Origin: a virus
Strand: one strand, 5' to 3'
IMG/VR virus record: IMGVR_UViG_3300045996_000157
Location: 1-22,932 of that record
Length of the DNA: 22,932 nucleotides
Shown here: positions 3,436 to 15,998 of the stretch, one piece after another
Layout: each line of letters starts with the position of its first letter
Numbering within the stretch: the stretch's first letter is position 1
Made by a program: the position numbers and the translations under genes
Notes under the pieces: model-generated
What the model was told of the DNA's origin: nothing
The model's database searches: none
The model's input: the letters and a program-made list of their open reading frames with translations, nothing else

Positions 3436-3711
3436 ATGTCCAAGAAGATCGCCAAGGAACTTGAGTCCGACCTGCGTGGCTACCTGCAGCAGGCTATGGA
3501 CAGACTGGATGTCGCTACTAAGCCCAATGGGCCGGATCGGTTCTCGTACCATGAGGTAGTGGACCGTGCCCACATCATCCTTGAGATGATTGATACGCAC
3601 CTTGCGGCGCATCCTGTGGTGCAAGCCGATTGGGACTTGGAACTGAAGGTCAAGGCTGCGTCTGAGGCTATTGCCGCAGTCTATCAGAAAGTCGGAGCGA
3701 TGGACTACTAA
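3436..3711 (+). CDS. hypothetical helical protein (91 aa)
   Basis: GGAGG (3423-3427) lies 8 bases before the ATG. The protein is mostly amphipathic helix (MSKKIAKELESDLRGYLQQ, then HEVVDRAHIILEMIDTHL and a C-terminal helix). No motif was recognised. It ends one base before the start of the metallopeptidase-like gene, so the two are probably co-translated. Confidence 0.7.
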   Translation: MSKKIAKELESDLRGYLQQAMDRLDVATKPNGPDRFSYHEVVDRAHIILEMIDTHLAAHPVVQADWDLELKVKAASEAIAAVYQKVGAMDY

Positions 3712-3712
3712 C

Positions 3713-4795
3713 ATGACTGATAACCTTAAGTCCAAGATTGGCATCCTTGCCGTCTCGGACCTCGTTCGATGGGTGCGCTCAGTAGTGGGTGTCCACTATG
3801 ACGTACGCTTTGAGGAGGATGCTCAGACGGCATACGTGGACTATACGAACAAGCGGATTGTCATCCCGACTCCGAATGCTCAGATGTCCCTGCGTGATGC
3901 CATTCGGTTGCGTGGGTTCTGTATCCACGAAACGAGCCATCCCATCTATCAGCCCAAGCTGGCTGAAGTTGTGGATAAGTACCCTGTGAAACAGGGCTCG
4001 CCTCTGGCTGGTGTGTTCAACCTTGTGTTGGACTGTCATGCTGAGTCGATGCGTGCTGCTGACTATCCGGGCGACATGAAAGCGTTGTCCGAGTTCGGGG
4101 CAGTCGTTGGCCATGACGTGACTGAAAAGGTCGCGGAGGGGCTTAAGGATAACGGTAACGTTTGGCCCAAGGGATTCGACAAGATGGCTACAGTTCTCTG
4201 TGCCATGCGCAATGCCGAGTCAACGTGGAATATCGGAATGCTCGTTGGCTTCGCCAAGCTGGTAGATGAACTCTATCCGCCTGAGTGGGTAGCCAAGGCT
4301 GTTGAGTTGGAAAAGAAATTCGACCTCACTCGTAGGCTTGTTACTGAGGGCAGTAAAGAGGACGAGTGGACCCTGTTTGATCTTGCCAAGCAGATATACG
4401 AATACCTCTGGGAACAGTCTGCCGAGTCGCAGATGGCTCCTGCAAAGGGGAAAGGCAAGGGCAAAAAAGAAAAAGGTGAAAAGGGTGAACCTTCGTCCGG
4501 CGCTGATGGCGATGGTGACGATGGTGATGAGGGAGAATCGCAGGAGGGTGACGAGGACGAGTCTGACGGTGACGGAGATGAGGCTGATAAGGATGCCGAT
4601 GGTGAGGCATCCAATAAGAAGCGTAAGACCAAGCTTAAGGTTACTGATCTCCTTAAGACCGACCACTACGAGACGTCACGCAAAGGCGGGGGTCACGGTA
4701 TGGGATTCGATTACACTAACTATACAAGCTATCGAACCTATACGCCAGTTGACCCCGCCACCTTTAGGATTACTAAATACGGAGCGAAGCGATAA
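3713..4795 (+). CDS. HExxH metallopeptidase-like protein, CobT N-terminal-like
   Basis: The 360-residue protein carries HETSH at residues 72-76, a zinc-peptidase HExxH motif. Asp107 and Glu111 in NLVLDCHAESM are candidates for a third ligand. A helical region follows, then a Lys/Gly-rich and strongly acidic low-complexity tract (about residues 245-305), and a short Tyr-rich C-terminus. CobT-type proteins and related VWA partners of AAA+ ATPases combine a similar N-domain, an acidic linker and a C-terminal VWA domain. Here the VWA domain is encoded by the next gene, which overlaps by one base (ATAATGG). I chose ATG 3713 because an upstream extension has no site. The Shine-Dalgarno match is poor (GGAG, 15 bases away). 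Confidence 0.8.
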   Translation: MTDNLKSKIGILAVSDLVRWVRSVVGVHYDVRFEEDAQTAYVDYTNKRIVIPTPNAQMSLRDAIRLRGFCIHETSHPIYQPKLAEVVDKYPVKQGSPLAGVFNLVLDCHAESMRAADYPGDMKALSEFGAVVGHDVTEKVAEGLKDNGNVWPKGFDKMATVLCAMRNAESTWNIGMLVGFAKLVDELYPPEWVAKAVELEKKFDLTRRLVTEGSKEDEWTLFDLAKQIYEYLWEQSAESQMAPAKGKGKGKKEKGEKGEPSSGADGDGDDGDEGESQEGDEDESDGDGDEADKDADGEASNKKRKTKLKVTDLLKTDHYETSRKGGGHGMGFDYTNYTSYRTYTPVDPATFRITKYGAKR

Positions 4796-5571
4796 TGGGA
4801 CGCTACAACCAGTCCCCGCGAGACTATCACATTGGTAAGTCGTCGCCTGCCTTTGTTTCGAACATGCGCCGCTTGTTGCAGGTGAGGGCTGCTAAGCATT
4901 ACTCACACGGGCATAAGCAGGGAAAGCTTGCTGCGTCCCGTCTCTGGCGTGTGGGTCTACCTCCTATCGACGGGGGAGACTGGAACTCCCGTGTGTTTAA
5001 GAAACGCACGGCAGAGACGGACCTTCTTAATACCGCAATCCTAATTCTTACGGACGGCTCTGGCTCCATGTCAGGGGAGAAGTTTGCCACTACCGCAAGG
5101 GCTGCGGGGCTGTGTAATGATGCGTTCGCTAACGTGTTGCATATACCTTTGGCTGTGGTATGCTTCACGTCATCGGGGGCTACTCCGGTGTTGGGCATCA
5201 TGAAAGACTTCAACGAACGTGTGTCCGACGACCAGATGGCCGAAAGGTACTATGACTTTGCCGCACACATGGCAGGCAACAATGATGCTGACTCACTGCT
5301 GTGGGCATACCATCATATCCTTACGCGGCCTGAGAAGCGTAAGCTGATTATCGTCCTGTCGGATGGTAGTCCTGCGGACGGCATCGGTGATCCGTACTAT
5401 GCTCTCAAGCAGGTCACGGAACAGATCCTCAAGGAGGGTCGAGTTGATTTGTATGGCATCGGTATCATGGACACGAACGTGACTGCGTTCTATCCCAAGA
5501 ACCGTGTCATTAAGTCGATCAGTGAACTAGAGAGTGCTCTAGTTGACGTGATGGGTAAGGCACTAACGTAA
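4795..5571 (+). CDS. VWA-domain protein, CobT C-terminal-like
   Basis: The 258-residue protein contains a von Willebrand A fold. ILILTDGSGSMSG gives the MIDAS motif DxSxS at Asp87, Ser89 and Ser91. GNNDADSLLWA (161-171) resembles the second metal loop of chelatase VWA subunits, and IVLSDGSP (about 186-193) carries a further conserved Asp. VWA proteins of this class bind a metal-dependent partner and work with a MoxR/CobS AAA+ ATPase, which is the next gene. The start overlaps the upstream gene by one base. Together with 3713-4795 it looks like a CobT split into two polypeptides. Confidence 0.88.
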   Translation: MGRYNQSPRDYHIGKSSPAFVSNMRRLLQVRAAKHYSHGHKQGKLAASRLWRVGLPPIDGGDWNSRVFKKRTAETDLLNTAILILTDGSGSMSGEKFATTARAAGLCNDAFANVLHIPLAVVCFTSSGATPVLGIMKDFNERVSDDQMAERYYDFAAHMAGNNDADSLLWAYHHILTRPEKRKLIIVLSDGSPADGIGDPYYALKQVTEQILKEGRVDLYGIGIMDTNVTAFYPKNRVIKSISELESALVDVMGKALT

Positions 5572-5596
5572 CCAAGAACGATAGGAGAAAGAGGGA

Positions 5597-6697
5597 ATGG
5601 CTACGATGAAAACTGGTTTCGCGTCTGACTTGGACGCAGACCTCATGCGGCATCTTGAACAGGCGCAGGACTTGGCCGGGATCAAGAAGCCCAAGCCGAA
5701 GGCGTCGGGCGGTGCCCGCACCTTCGAATACCGGGAGGGCTTCAAGCCCATCGACGGCGTGCTTCCGCTCGCCAAGGTCGCGATGCGAATCCCGATCCGT
5801 GTGTTCAAGAGTGAGGATTGGCCCGAGCACATGCGGAAGTTCATCCCGAAGGTGGATGACCAGTATGTGTTCCCGCCTGAGGAAACTCTGGCTGTGGTCG
5901 CTGAGTTATTCAGTGATCGTCCGCGCGAGCAGTGCGGTATCGCATTCCTCTCTGGTCCGAAGGGTTCGGGTAAGACCTCCCTCGTCCAGCAGATTTGCGC
6001 GCGGATCAACATGCCTTGGCTGCGTGTCAATGGCAAAGAGGACGCTGAGTCCGCCGCGTACTTCGGTTCTGTGAAATACGACCCGGTCAATGGTATGTCT
6101 TGGGCCGATGGCCCGGTGACTGAGTGTGCCCGGTTCGGTGGCGTGATTTGCTGTGATGAAGTGTCGCGCAATCCGTCAGGTATCAATGCCTCGCTCATGG
6201 CGGTGGCGGAGAAGGGCTCCAATCTCTACCTTGCTGACAAGCCGGGTAAGTCTGAGGAGAAGTTCATCGTTCCGCATGAGTGGTTCCGGATGACTTGGAC
6301 TGACAACACGGAGTTGCAAGGTGACACTACTGGTAAGTATGTCGGCACGAATGTTCAAGATGAAGCTCTTATCGACCGGGTTGCCACGACCATTCGCCTC
6401 GGTTATCTTTCACAGGCCCATGAAGTCGCAATCATCACGGGCAAGGTTAAGGATATCGATAACTTTACGGCGCAAAAGATGGTCCAGTTGGCCGCCATGA
6501 TCCGCCAGAGCTACGACGGCGGTAACATCGGCTTCACGATGTCTCCCCGTGGCTTGCTGGAGTGGGCAGAGAAGATCGCCTTCTGGCAGAATGAGAAGAC
6601 GGGCTTCAAGCTGTCCTTCTTCAACAAGCTGACGACCTCGGACCAGAACATTGTTGCCGAGTTCTATCACACGGTCTTTGCGGAGAATCTCCGATAA
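5597..6697 (+). CDS. CobS/MoxR-family AAA+ ATPase
   Basis: In this 366-residue protein Walker A is GPKGSGKT (120-127) and Walker B is VICCDE (Asp187, Glu188). TWTDNT (about 235-240) supplies the sensor-1 Asn, and arginines follow in LIDRVATTIRL. The domain order matches CobS, the ATPase of aerobic cobaltochelatase, and phage CobS-like proteins. In cobaltochelatase CobS and CobT insert cobalt into hydrogenobyrinate diamide together with CobN, which is not in this window. AGGAG (5583-5587) precedes the ATG by 9 bases. It is either a cobalamin-related auxiliary gene or a MoxR-type remodelling ATPase acting with the two upstream proteins; sequence alone does not decide. Confidence 0.87.
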   Translation: MATMKTGFASDLDADLMRHLEQAQDLAGIKKPKPKASGGARTFEYREGFKPIDGVLPLAKVAMRIPIRVFKSEDWPEHMRKFIPKVDDQYVFPPEETLAVVAELFSDRPREQCGIAFLSGPKGSGKTSLVQQICARINMPWLRVNGKEDAESAAYFGSVKYDPVNGMSWADGPVTECARFGGVICCDEVSRNPSGINASLMAVAEKGSNLYLADKPGKSEEKFIVPHEWFRMTWTDNTELQGDTTGKYVGTNVQDEALIDRVATTIRLGYLSQAHEVAIITGKVKDIDNFTAQKMVQLAAMIRQSYDGGNIGFTMSPRGLLEWAEKIAFWQNEKTGFKLSFFNKLTTSDQNIVAEFYHTVFAENLR

Positions 6698-6819: not shown

Positions 6820-7055
6820 AACTCAAGTTCTGTCCGAACTGCGGTCGTAATCCTCCTCGGACTGAGGATGCGGTGATGTGCCAGCAGTGCTACGACTCTG
6901 TGCCCTTCACGCAAAGGGACGACATCGAACGGGTCTTCAAGGCGCTAGTCGCCGGTGATGAGGGGAAGCCACCTATGAAGTACCTCAATGACCTGTTTGA
7001 CGAGTACGAGCGGGAACGGATGGATCAACTAGATAAGGAGAAGAAGGATGTTTGA
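6816..7055 (+). CDS. small zinc-ribbon protein (79 aa)
   Basis: Residues 6-25 contain CPNCG and CQQCY, four cysteines in a zinc-ribbon arrangement. A charged helical C-terminus ends DKEKKDV. Such ribbons in phages bind zinc and often contact nucleic acid or protein partners, but no specific family was recognised. The ATG overlaps the previous stop, and the end overlaps the next gene by 8 bases. Confidence 0.75.
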   Translation: MKLKFCPNCGRNPPRTEDAVMCQQCYDSVPFTQRDDIERVFKALVAGDEGKPPMKYLNDLFDEYERERMDQLDKEKKDV

Positions 7056-7233
7056 CGTATACTTTGTTAACTGCTTTCTGGCAGTTATCCTTGCCTTCAT
7101 CGGTGGTGCATACTACCGTGAGCGGGTGTGGATTGATCGTATGAAGATGATGGTCAAGGCCGGGGGATTCTCCGGCACGGCACTGCGTATGCCTTCGACT
7201 AAGGATACGAGTGACGATAGACCATTGCACTGA
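7048..7233 (+). CDS. small membrane protein (61 aa)
   Basis: AAGGAGAAGAAGG immediately precedes the ATG. The hydrophobic segment (about residues 4-21, VYFVNCFLAVILAFIGGA) is followed by a basic stretch (YYRERVWIDRMKMMVK), which suggests one membrane span with a cytoplasmic C-terminus. The stop (7231-7233) lies 2 bases before the permuted tRNA structure, so both may share a transcript. Confidence 0.65.
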   Translation: MFDVYFVNCFLAVILAFIGGAYYRERVWIDRMKMMVKAGGFSGTALRMPSTKDTSDDRPLH

Positions 7234-7235
7234 AC

Positions 7236-7325
7236 AAGGGAAAGGGTGGGGAGTCGCCGGTTCGAATCCGGCCATCGGGGATTCCGATGTAGCTCAGTTG
7301 GCAGAGCACCTACCTAAATTCCCTT
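7236..7325 (+). tRNA. circularly permuted tRNA (3' half precedes 5' half)
   Basis: The 3' half comes first: GTGGG (7246-7250, anticodon stem), GAGTC (variable loop), GCCGG-TTCGAAT-CCGGC (T arm, 7256-7272) and CATCGGG (acceptor, 7273-7279). After only GAT comes the 5' half: TCCGATG (acceptor, 7283-7289), TA (positions 8 and 9), GCTC-AGTTGGCA-GAGC (D arm, 7292-7307), A26 and CCTAC (7309-7313). The acceptor stem pairs 6 bp plus a U-G. CCTAC pairs with GTGGG with one wobble, and C7314 with G7245 extends it. Outside, AAGGGAA (7236-7242) pairs with TTCCCTT (7319-7325). U8, A14, G18, G19, C48, T54, T55, C56 and A58 are all present. Joining at the shared AAA gives loop CTAAAGG. No CCA is encoded. The amino acid identity is uncertain, because anticodon AAA would be very unusual. 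Confidence 0.65.
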
Positions 7326-7661
7326 ATACACGTTCGCGTGTGGTACGCGAGGAGTTCTCGGGCCAAACAGGGATATGGGGGCGTGCATACACTAGAGAAG
7401 AGGCTAGTTTACCACTTCGATGACGGTGTCAATGATGTCCCGACTTATTATCACCGGCCACAGGCGTTGATCCTGTGAGGAGGTAGCGTGCCATACAGTT
7501 TCATCGTGGCGGTCCACGGGAATACCCCTGCCTGATTGGGGCCAACAATAATTGATAATAAAGCGATAATAAGGACTATAAATAACGCTTAGAGGGATTT
7601 GAGCGGGTCGTGATCCCGGACTCATACGGGGTTTATACTACAACTAAAAGAGGTACAAGTA
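7326..7661 (+). ncRNA. gene-free, hairpin-rich stretch after the permuted tRNA
   Basis: No credible gene was seen. Hairpins are ACACG-TTCG-CGTGT (7328-7341), CGAG/CTCG (7348-7360), ACTAG/CTAGT (7391-7408), CACAGG/CCTGTG (7459-7477), CGTGG/CCACG (7505-7518) and CCCC/GGGG (7525-7541). AGGTAG (7481-7486) is complementary to CTACCT (7310-7315) at the end of the tRNA 5' half. The density of hairpins suggests a folded RNA, perhaps linked to maturation of the permuted tRNA. I could not recognise a group I intron core or any known RNA family. Confidence 0.4.
7552..7582 (+). promoter_or_regulatory. weak sigma70-like promoter candidate
   Basis: TTGATA (7552-7557) and TATAAA (7577-7582) each match consensus at five positions but are separated by 19 bp, which is long. 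GATAATAA is repeated at 7554 and 7565. It would drive the replication operon that begins at 7662. Confidence 0.3.
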
Positions 7662-14499: not shown

Positions 14500-15126
14500 A
14501 TGAGCACTTATAGTTTCGAGGTTGCATCAATCAATGAACGTACCGTCACGACCAAGTTTGGCCCTAAAAAGGCTTATGATCTTGTCTCGACAGATGGAAC
14601 GAGGTACGGATTCGCGTTCACTAATCCAGCCCGGTCGGGCATTTCTGTTGGCACGAAGGTGTCGGCGTCTGGCGAAGTGGGACGGTTTGGCGTCGCTCTG
14701 GACCCCAAGACCGTTACAATCGGAGGAGAAGTAAATGACATGGAAACGCCAGCGGCTTCCGTTCCCAAGCAGGTTAGCTACTCGGGTCGGGCTGAGAAGG
14801 TTTTCCCTCTCCCTACCACGCACGGTGATACGGCCATTATTCGGCAGAACGCACTTACGAATGCGGTTGCGACAGTGGCAGATTTTGTTGCTACTCAACC
14901 GACGGAAAAGTGGCCCACCCTAGACACTTGGACGGACATGGTCATCAAGACTGCGTACAAGTATGCGGAGTTCTCTTCGGGTCAGCGTGAAATGAAGGCG
15001 ATCAAGGCCATGCGTGCTGTCGGCATGGAAGCATCCGAGATCAAGTCTGCTGTCGAGCAGCACCTTGACGAGGGTGTCGAGCACATCACCCTAGGTGACG
15101 GTCACAGTGACTGTGAGGCCGCCTAA
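14500..15126 (+). CDS. OB-fold protein, putative ssDNA-binding
   Basis: The ATG lies just after the polymerase stop; AAGGAG (14483-14488) is the site. Residues 1-75 form a five-strand pattern (YSFEVASINERTVTTKFG, AYDLVSTDGTRYGFAF, VGTKVSASGEVGRFG) that fits an OB fold. A linker and a helical domain (about 110-190) follow, containing RQNALTNAVATVADF. The C-terminus is mildly acidic (GDGHSDCEAA), like the tails of SSBs that recruit partners. Position next to the polymerase suggests the gp2.5-type role. Confidence 0.65.
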   Translation: MSTYSFEVASINERTVTTKFGPKKAYDLVSTDGTRYGFAFTNPARSGISVGTKVSASGEVGRFGVALDPKTVTIGGEVNDMETPAASVPKQVSYSGRAEKVFPLPTTHGDTAIIRQNALTNAVATVADFVATQPTEKWPTLDTWTDMVIKTAYKYAEFSSGQREMKAIKAMRAVGMEASEIKSAVEQHLDEGVEHITLGDGHSDCEAA

Positions 15127-15998
15127 TGGACGAAACCAACTTTAAGCCGTATATCAAGTGGGGTATCCGTGGCGCACTAGGTCTACTCGGCCTAGTGGTC
15201 GCCCTCAATAGCTTCACGGTTGTCGATACCGGCTTCCGTGGCGTGAAGACGACCTTCGGTGAGGTACAGGGGTCGGCTCTCCCTGAGGGCTTGTACTTCA
15301 AGATCCCTGTGGCCCAGAAGATCATTGAGATCGACACCCGGATCCAGAAGTGGTCCGGAGATACGTTTGCCTACACGGGCGATACGCAACAGGCAAAGGT
15401 CTTCTTTGTCCTCAACTATCGCTTGGATCCCGCCGAGGCGGCTACTACCTATCGGGACGTAGGCGTTGATTGGGCATACAAGCTCGTTGGACAGGTTGTC
15501 CATGAGAACTTGAAGAAAGAGTTCGGTCAGTTCAAGGCAGTGGACATCGTCGCTAACCGTGACAAGGTCGCTCGTAACATTGAGACTAGCGTTACCAGTA
15601 TCCTTTTGAAGCGGGGCGTGGTTGTCTCTAGCTTCCAGCTAACCAACATCGACTATACGGACCAGTTCGAAAAGGCCGTAGAGGCAAAGGTAGTCGCACA
15701 ACAGGATGCCATCCGTGAACAGAACCGTACCGTCCAGATCAAGGAGCAGGCTACTCAAAAGATTGAGACTGCTAAAGGAGATGCAGAGGCAACGGTTCTT
15801 TCGGCTACCGCCAAGGCGGAGGCGACTGTTCTTAATGCTAGAGCAGAGGCGGAGTCTATCCAGATTCGCGCGAAAGCTCTAGAGCAGAATCCCAAGCTCG
15901 TAGAGTGGGAAGCGGTGAAGCAGTGGGATGGCCGTATGCCTCAATTTGTTATGGGCGAAGGTGGGATGCCCCTTATTCAAATCCCGACCAATCGGTGA
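15126..15998 (+). CDS. SPFH/prohibitin (HflC-like) membrane protein
   Basis: The 290-residue protein has an N-terminal membrane anchor (about residues 13-31, IRGALGLLGLVVALNSFTV). An SPFH domain follows (VDTGFRGVKTTFGEV to about residue 190), then a long Ala/Glu/Lys coiled coil (about 190-260). Prohibitins, HflK and HflC form membrane rings that restrain FtsH protease. A phage copy could modulate host FtsH or organise the membrane, but no partner is visible here. The ATG overlaps the previous stop (TAATG). Confidence 0.88.
   Translation: MDETNFKPYIKWGIRGALGLLGLVVALNSFTVVDTGFRGVKTTFGEVQGSALPEGLYFKIPVAQKIIEIDTRIQKWSGDTFAYTGDTQQAKVFFVLNYRLDPAEAATTYRDVGVDWAYKLVGQVVHENLKKEFGQFKAVDIVANRDKVARNIETSVTSILLKRGVVVSSFQLTNIDYTDQFEKAVEAKVVAQQDAIREQNRTVQIKEQATQKIETAKGDAEATVLSATAKAEATVLNARAEAESIQIRAKALEQNPKLVEWEAVKQWDGRMPQFVMGEGGMPLIQIPTNR

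What the first reader, a model, noticed from the sequence alone, without database searches (positions are those of the whole stretch)
7236..7325. Circularly permuted tRNA gene in a phage
The T-arm half and the D-arm half of one tRNA are both textbook sequences but occur in reversed order. Four independent pairings support one folded unit: the acceptor stem across a GAT gap, the anticodon stem, the T and D arms, and an extra 7-bp helix AAGGGAA/TTCCCTT joining leader and trailer. All standard conserved bases are present. I know of permuted tRNA genes in Cyanidioschyzon, some green algae and a few archaea, where a splicing endonuclease matures them. Bacteria lack that enzyme, so a phage version would need another joining route, or would act uncut as a tRNA mimic.
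Basis: partly seen in the sequence, partly recalled or inferred. Interest (0 to 1): 0.95.

Follow-up and report, generated by a model that had tools for sequence, protein, structure and literature searches.

The report
Phage Y RNA that mimics tRNA
The reversed-order tRNA in this phage fragment is real, but it is best read as a short Y RNA of the known YrlA kind, a small non-coding RNA whose head copies the shape of a tRNA, rather than a scrambled tRNA gene that has to be cut and rejoined.

Summary
At 7236-7325 (+) the T-arm half of a tRNA precedes the D-arm half. Acceptor, T, D, inner and outer helices form one four-way fold (MFE -41.9 kcal/mol, z -3.9), and ARAGORN calls a tRNA once the halves are put in normal order. 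The interpretation changes. This arrangement is that of YrlA, the bacterial Y RNA with a tRNA-like head on a Ro60-binding stem. Rfam RF02553 matches 7236-7328 end to end at 46.5 bits (E 1.3e-8), below its 69-bit cut-off; ordinary tandem-tRNA junctions in five control loci reach at most 34.2. I found about 50 more such modules in viral contigs, with strong covariation in the T and acceptor stems. In 27 of 51 of those records a Ro60 (TROVE) gene is present, mostly within about 2 kb, against 2 of 40 tRNA-cluster controls. RtcB ligase is in only 2 of 48. The window's 22.9-kb fragment shows no Ro60, so its partner is unproven: host-encoded, beyond the fragment, or absent. The likely role is a Ro60/PNPase adaptor, or a tRNA decoy. 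Phage Y RNAs are already reported, so this is a new, compact member of a known kind. More curious: 23 of 53 modules keep a canonical anticodon loop, which the window lacks.

The parts
7236..7325 (+). whole element: compact YrlA-like Y RNA, 90 nt
   Evidence: RF02553 match 7236-7328, 46.5 bits, full-length model; fold -41.9 kcal/mol, z -3.88
7236..7242 (+). outer (basal) stem, 5' strand AAGGGAA; candidate Ro60-binding helix
   Evidence: 7 of 7 pairs with 7319-7325
7319..7325 (+). outer (basal) stem, 3' strand TTCCCTT
   Evidence: pairs with 7236-7242; inside it lies a 1 x 3 internal loop (A7243 against AAA 7316-7318)
7244..7250 (+). inner helix 5' strand GGGTGGG (tRNA positions 37-43; occupies the anticodon-stem place)
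   Evidence: 7 of 7 pairs with 7309-7315, G-U included
7309..7315 (+). inner helix 3' strand CCTACCT (tRNA positions 27-33)
7251..7255 (+). variable region GAGTC; its GTC (7253-7255) is shared by 55 of 58 related modules
   Evidence: GTC was part of two of the three scan patterns, so the count is partly by construction
7256..7272 (+). T arm GCCGG TTCGAAT CCGGC
   Evidence: fold; T stem covaries over 53 modules
7273..7289 (+). acceptor-like stem CATCGGG / TCCGATG closed by a GAT gap (7280-7282): the ends of a normal tRNA are joined here
   Evidence: 7 of 7 pairs; all seven pairs covary over 53 modules
7292..7307 (+). D arm GCTC AGTTGGCA GAGC, preceded by U8 A9 (7290-7291)
7308..7308 (+). A26-like junction nucleotide
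   Evidence: spacing as in tRNA

Best explanation
The element is a phage-encoded Y RNA of the YrlA type. Its RNA is used uncut: the T, D and acceptor-like arms make a tRNA-shaped head, and the paired 5' and 3' ends make the basal Y-RNA stem. Shown here: the fold, the RF02553 similarity, the existence of a covarying family of such modules in viral contigs, and that family's strong link to Ro60 genes. Inferred from the studied bacterial YrlA: the basal stem docks on a Ro60/Rsr ring (host-encoded, or phage-encoded outside this fragment), and the tRNA-like head docks on PNPase and other tRNA-binding enzymes, so that the RNA gates or tethers an RNA-degradation or RNA-repair complex during infection. 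Identity as a YrlA-like RNA: about 0.8. The Ro60 step for this particular copy: about 0.5.
For: RF02553 YrlA matches 7236-7328 over model positions 1-114, 46.5 bits, E 1.3e-8 in 2.6 kb and 2.8e-11 in the record. Tandem tRNA junctions in five control loci reach at most 34.2 bits. A length of 90 nt with paired ends and a tRNA-like D/T/acceptor domain fits the published description of YrlA (PMC8394870). In 53 modules of this layout, 52 from viral contigs (the window included) and one from phage Rey, 98.1% of pair cells are kept, the covariation score is 0.72 against 0.16 shuffled, and 10 of 16 pairs have two-sided changes. TROVE/Ro60 is in 27 of 51 module records against 2 of 40 tRNA-cluster records, Fisher p 3e-7; in 24 of the 27 it lies within about 2.1 kb of the module. 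The basal part, a 7-bp helix followed by one unpaired nucleotide facing three, resembles the layout given for the vertebrate Ro60 site (PMC4726728; the single base here is A, not C). Ro60/TROVE proteins and YrlA in phages have been noted before (PMC7824862; PMC7765460).
Against: The Rfam score is below the curated 69-bit cut-off; none of the related modules reaches it either. The window's record has no TROVE gene, though it is a 22.9-kb linear fragment. The basal stem is much shorter than in the YrlA consensus, and the conserved sequences of a bacterial Ro60 site were not tested. No sigma-70-like promoter on the + strand and no terminator-like site was found near the element, so a separate transcript is not shown. 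No expression data.
Confidence: 0.78

Rival explanations
1. A Ro60-independent tRNA mimic: the phage RNA keeps the tRNA-like head to occupy host tRNA-binding enzymes (an anticodon nuclease, RNase P, a modification enzyme or PNPase) and has no Ro60 partner.
For: No TROVE in the window's record nor in other module carriers, among them the complete 83.7-kb Mycobacterium phage Rey and several records over 100 kb. [quoted passage not shown]
Against: About half of the module-bearing records do carry Ro60, mostly close by; hosts may supply Rsr; the paired basal stem is kept although a decoy would not need it.
Confidence: 0.12
2. A true circularly permuted tRNA gene: the transcript is cut and the halves are joined into a working tRNA, for instance by RtcB.
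For: ARAGORN calls a tRNA in the reordered sequence. 23 of 53 modules keep a canonical Y32-U33-NNN-R37 loop. Two module carriers, one of them phage Rey, encode RtcB.
Against: In the window neither strand at the junction gives a canonical loop, and the nominal anticodon is AAA (Phe). The junction is a 1 x 3 internal loop, not a bulge-helix-bulge motif. RtcB is in only 2 of 48 records and not in the window. The layout and Ro60 linkage of the family fit Y RNA.
Confidence: 0.05
3. Debris: the 3' half of one tRNA gene next to the 5' half of another, left after loss of a tRNA cluster.
For: Tandem tRNAs with very short spacers give the same T-arm/D-arm order at their junctions.
Against: At 262 junctions overlapped by a called tRNA the acceptor halves pair 7 of 7 once (mean 3.3), against 37 of 58 tRNA-free modules (mean 6.3) and 7 of 7 in the window. 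The inner and outer helices would be unexplained. No tRNA was called in the window.
Confidence: 0.03

Closest known systems
YrlA / bacterial Y RNA (Rfam RF02553; Salmonella YrlA)
   Same: Permuted tRNA-like head (T arm, acceptor-like stem closed by a short loop, D arm, in that order) on a basal stem of paired 5' and 3' ends; length at the low end of the published 90-150 nt; end-to-end covariance-model match.
   Different: Compact: roughly a whole helix segment of the consensus basal stem is missing. 46.5 bits, under the 69-bit cut-off. No Ro60 gene in the fragment.
Y RNA-like modules of other phages (for example Mycobacterium phage Rey 57992-58061, IMG/VR loci in this report)
   Same: Same order of arms, the same GTC before the T stem, RF02553 scores in the same range (about 23 to 58 bits), and like several of them without a TROVE gene in the record.
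   Different: Many carry longer basal stems and a canonical anticodon loop 5' of the 39-43 strand; the window does not.
Circularly permuted tRNA genes of red and green algae and archaea
   Same: 3' half of the tRNA precedes the 5' half.
   Different: Those give working tRNAs through a splicing endonuclease (general knowledge); here there is no bulge-helix-bulge junction, no usable anticodon loop and no known joining enzyme in the fragment.
tmRNA
   Same: A non-coding RNA that uses part of a tRNA fold.
   Different: No tag reading frame; ARAGORN finds no tmRNA in the window.

Membership tests
YrlA / bacterial Y RNA | tRNA-like domain with D, T and acceptor-like arms in permuted order | tested here: met
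   covariation over 53 modules
YrlA / bacterial Y RNA | large basal stem made by pairing of the 5' and 3' ends | tested here: met
   7-bp outer plus 7-bp inner helix with a 1 x 3 internal loop; shorter than the Rfam consensus
YrlA / bacterial Y RNA | score at or above the Rfam curated cut-off (69 bits) | tested here: not met
   46.5 bits, E 1.3e-8; no viral relative reaches it. This is a database threshold rather than a biological feature, so I call it YrlA-like and not a formal RF02553 member
YrlA / bacterial Y RNA | encoded near a Ro60/Rsr (TROVE) gene | tested here: inconclusive
   none in the 22.9-kb fragment; present in 27 of 51 related records against 2 of 40 controls
YrlA / bacterial Y RNA | binds Ro60/Rsr by the stem and PNPase by the head | not testable with these tools
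   needs binding assays
circularly permuted tRNA gene | halves in reversed order that give a full tRNA when joined | tested here: met
   ARAGORN on the reordered sequence, with a poor anticodon loop
circularly permuted tRNA gene | canonical anticodon loop (U33, purine 37) | tested here: not met
   GGAAAGG on one side, CUAAAUU on the other
circularly permuted tRNA gene | bulge-helix-bulge junction cut by a splicing endonuclease | tested here: not met
   the junction is a 1 x 3 internal loop between two 7-bp helices
circularly permuted tRNA gene | mature joined tRNA in cells | not testable with these tools
   needs RNA sequencing

The most novel reading that the evidence does not exclude
The phage modules, of which this is a reduced example, are permuted tRNAs in their own right rather than only Y RNAs: many keep a canonical anticodon loop for different amino acids, some phages that carry them lack Ro60, and two encode RtcB. 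They might be joined into working tRNAs, or act as bait for anticodon nucleases that hosts use as defence.
Probability: 0.1. Interest if true: 0.75.

Novelty: new member of a known kind. Interest (0 to 1): 0.33.

Why it matters
It shows that a 'permuted tRNA gene' in a phage is, in this case, best read as a tRNA-mimicking Y RNA, a trap for any scan that looks for permuted tRNAs. It also gives a set of about 50 phage modules, about half with Ro60 in the record and some without, on which the open question of what Y RNAs do for phages (Ro60/PNPase adaptor, tRNA decoy, RNA repair) can be tested.

Tried and rejected
Rfam at gathering threshold found nothing in the window; only the lax search showed YrlA. 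A search for relatives of the nearby AAA ATPase in viral contigs found none, and phage records show only distant relatives of it and of the polymerase, so the host and the rest of this genome remain unknown. The one scan of bacterial genomes gave five loci, three of them plain tandem tRNAs; the other two (L316, L319) were not pursued. The key papers (Chen et al. 2014; Sim and Wolin 2018; Wang et al. 2018) are not held, so what they say rests on citing papers and on my memory. I considered a divergent Ro60 in the vWA protein at 4795-5571: Pfam places it in CobT_C, and TROVE gives no match. RtcB linkage was tested and found rare.

Full report
What is there. Window 7236-7325 (+) lies just after a 61-codon reading frame (7048-7233) and before the next sizeable same-strand frame (7662), in a phage-like fragment with DNA polymerase A, a DnaB-like helicase, a class II-like ribonucleotide reductase and a MoxR/vWA pair. 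Read 5' to 3' it holds an outer strand AAGGGAA, an inner strand GGGTGGG, variable GAGTC, a T arm, the 3' acceptor strand CATCGGG, the gap GAT, the 5' acceptor strand TCCGATG, TA, a D arm, A, the inner strand CCTACCT, AAA, and the outer strand TTCCCTT. It folds into exactly that four-way junction, at -41.9 kcal/mol with z -3.88. ARAGORN sees nothing as it stands, but calls a tRNA when the two halves are put in normal order.

What it is. The permissive Rfam search gives YrlA (RF02553) at 7236-7328, end to end on the model, 46.5 bits, E 1.3e-8. YrlA is the bacterial Y RNA: 90-150 nt, paired ends forming a basal stem that binds the Ro60 homologue Rsr, and a domain that copies the D, T and acceptor arms of tRNA and binds PNPase (PMC8394870). 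In the RF02553 consensus the T arm comes before the D arm, and the acceptor stem is closed by a short loop; the order is reversed because the RNA's ends lie where a tRNA has its anticodon. Nothing has to be cut or joined. The score is below Rfam's cut-off of 69, and the model also gives sub-threshold matches in 9 of 14 control genomes, so I tested further.

Relatives. Three scans of viral contigs for the T-arm/acceptor/D-arm layout, plus phage Rey from the BLAST search, gave 345 matches, of which 59 distinct ones, the window included, are not overlapped by a normal tRNA. At tRNA junctions used as controls the acceptor halves rarely pair (mean 3.3 of 7; 7 of 7 once in 262), whereas in the tRNA-free modules they do (mean 6.3; 7 of 7 in 37 of 58), as in the window. 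In an alignment of 53 modules the T and acceptor stems covary strongly: score 0.72 against 0.16 for shuffles and at most 0.17 for slid partners. These 53 were chosen for at least 6 acceptor pairs, and the D stem was fixed by the scan pattern, so the acceptor percentage is inflated; the outer three pairs of the T stem are free of that choice. Tandem tRNAs in five control loci reach 34.2 bits with RF02553, less than the window.

Ro60 linkage. A TROVE match (E <= 0.001) is present in 9 of 22 and 18 of 29 module-bearing records, against 2 of 40 records with ordinary tRNA clusters; Fisher p about 3e-7, computed with 27 of 50 against 2 of 40. Two of the 27 are below Pfam's curated cut-off. In 24 of the 27 an RF02553 match lies within about 2.1 kb of the TROVE match (positions). 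Records are not all independent, and a few of those counted hold modules with weak acceptor pairing (L064, L087, L111). The window's record and several long records, phage Rey among them, have no TROVE gene. So the class is a Ro60-linked Y RNA class, but the partner of this copy is not shown.

How it most likely works. By analogy with Deinococcus and Salmonella (PMC8394870; PMC7790460): the basal stem binds a Ro60 ring and the tRNA-like head binds PNPase or tRNA enzymes, as tether or gate. These steps are inferred, not shown. The base of the stem, a 7-bp helix followed by one unpaired nucleotide opposite three, resembles the layout of the vertebrate Ro60 site (PMC4726728), but the single base is A rather than C, and bacterial sites may differ, so this is a lead only. 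A Ro60-free decoy role is the main rival.

Against a permuted tRNA gene. The junction has no canonical loop on either strand, no bulge-helix-bulge motif, and no RtcB in the record; RtcB is in 2 of 48 records searched.

Known or new. Phage Ro60/TROVE proteins and phage YrlA have been noted (PMC7824862; PMC7765460), and from memory Chen et al. 2014 reported Y RNAs near Ro60 in more than 250 bacterial and phage species; that paper is not held. The window is thus a new, compact member of a known kind. The observation I would follow is that 23 of 53 modules keep a canonical anticodon loop, with anticodons UGU, GUU, GCU, UUU and others, which I did not find described in the passages I could read.

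Noticed in passing
L107, L160, L181, L249, L272, L298, L308 and others (coordinates): 23 of 53 permuted modules keep a canonical anticodon loop (Y32-U33-NNN-R37) directly 5' of the 39-43 strand, with several different anticodons (UGU 9, GUU 5, GCU 3, UUU 2, others).
   Followed up: partly
L122 4001-4069 (Mycobacterium phage Rey 57992-58061): Unannotated YrlA-like module (43.6 bits) in the tRNA array of phage Rey, a complete genome that has RtcB (63112-64254) but no TROVE gene.
   Followed up: partly
window 3671-6697: CobT-like protein split into two overlapping reading frames (3671-4795 and 4795-5571, both matching phrog_1576) followed by a MoxR/CobS-like AAA ATPase; resembles the MoxR-vWA-metallopeptidase pair described in jumbo phages (PMC7824862).
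   Followed up: no
window 7326-7345: A hairpin with a UUCG loop (ACACG-TTCG-CGTGT) follows the element directly, without a T run; in the longer fold it competes with an extension of the basal stem.
   Followed up: no
window 7411-7573: Several inverted repeats (for example 7444-7452 with 7565-7573, and 7411-7423 with 7501-7513) in the non-coding stretch after the element; no convincing Rfam match there.
   Followed up: no
window 15126-15998: SPFH/Band 7 protein encoded in a phage (PF01145, E 2e-29).
   Followed up: no
L014 5010-5434: GOLLD RNA (270 bits) inside a viral tRNA array.
   Followed up: no
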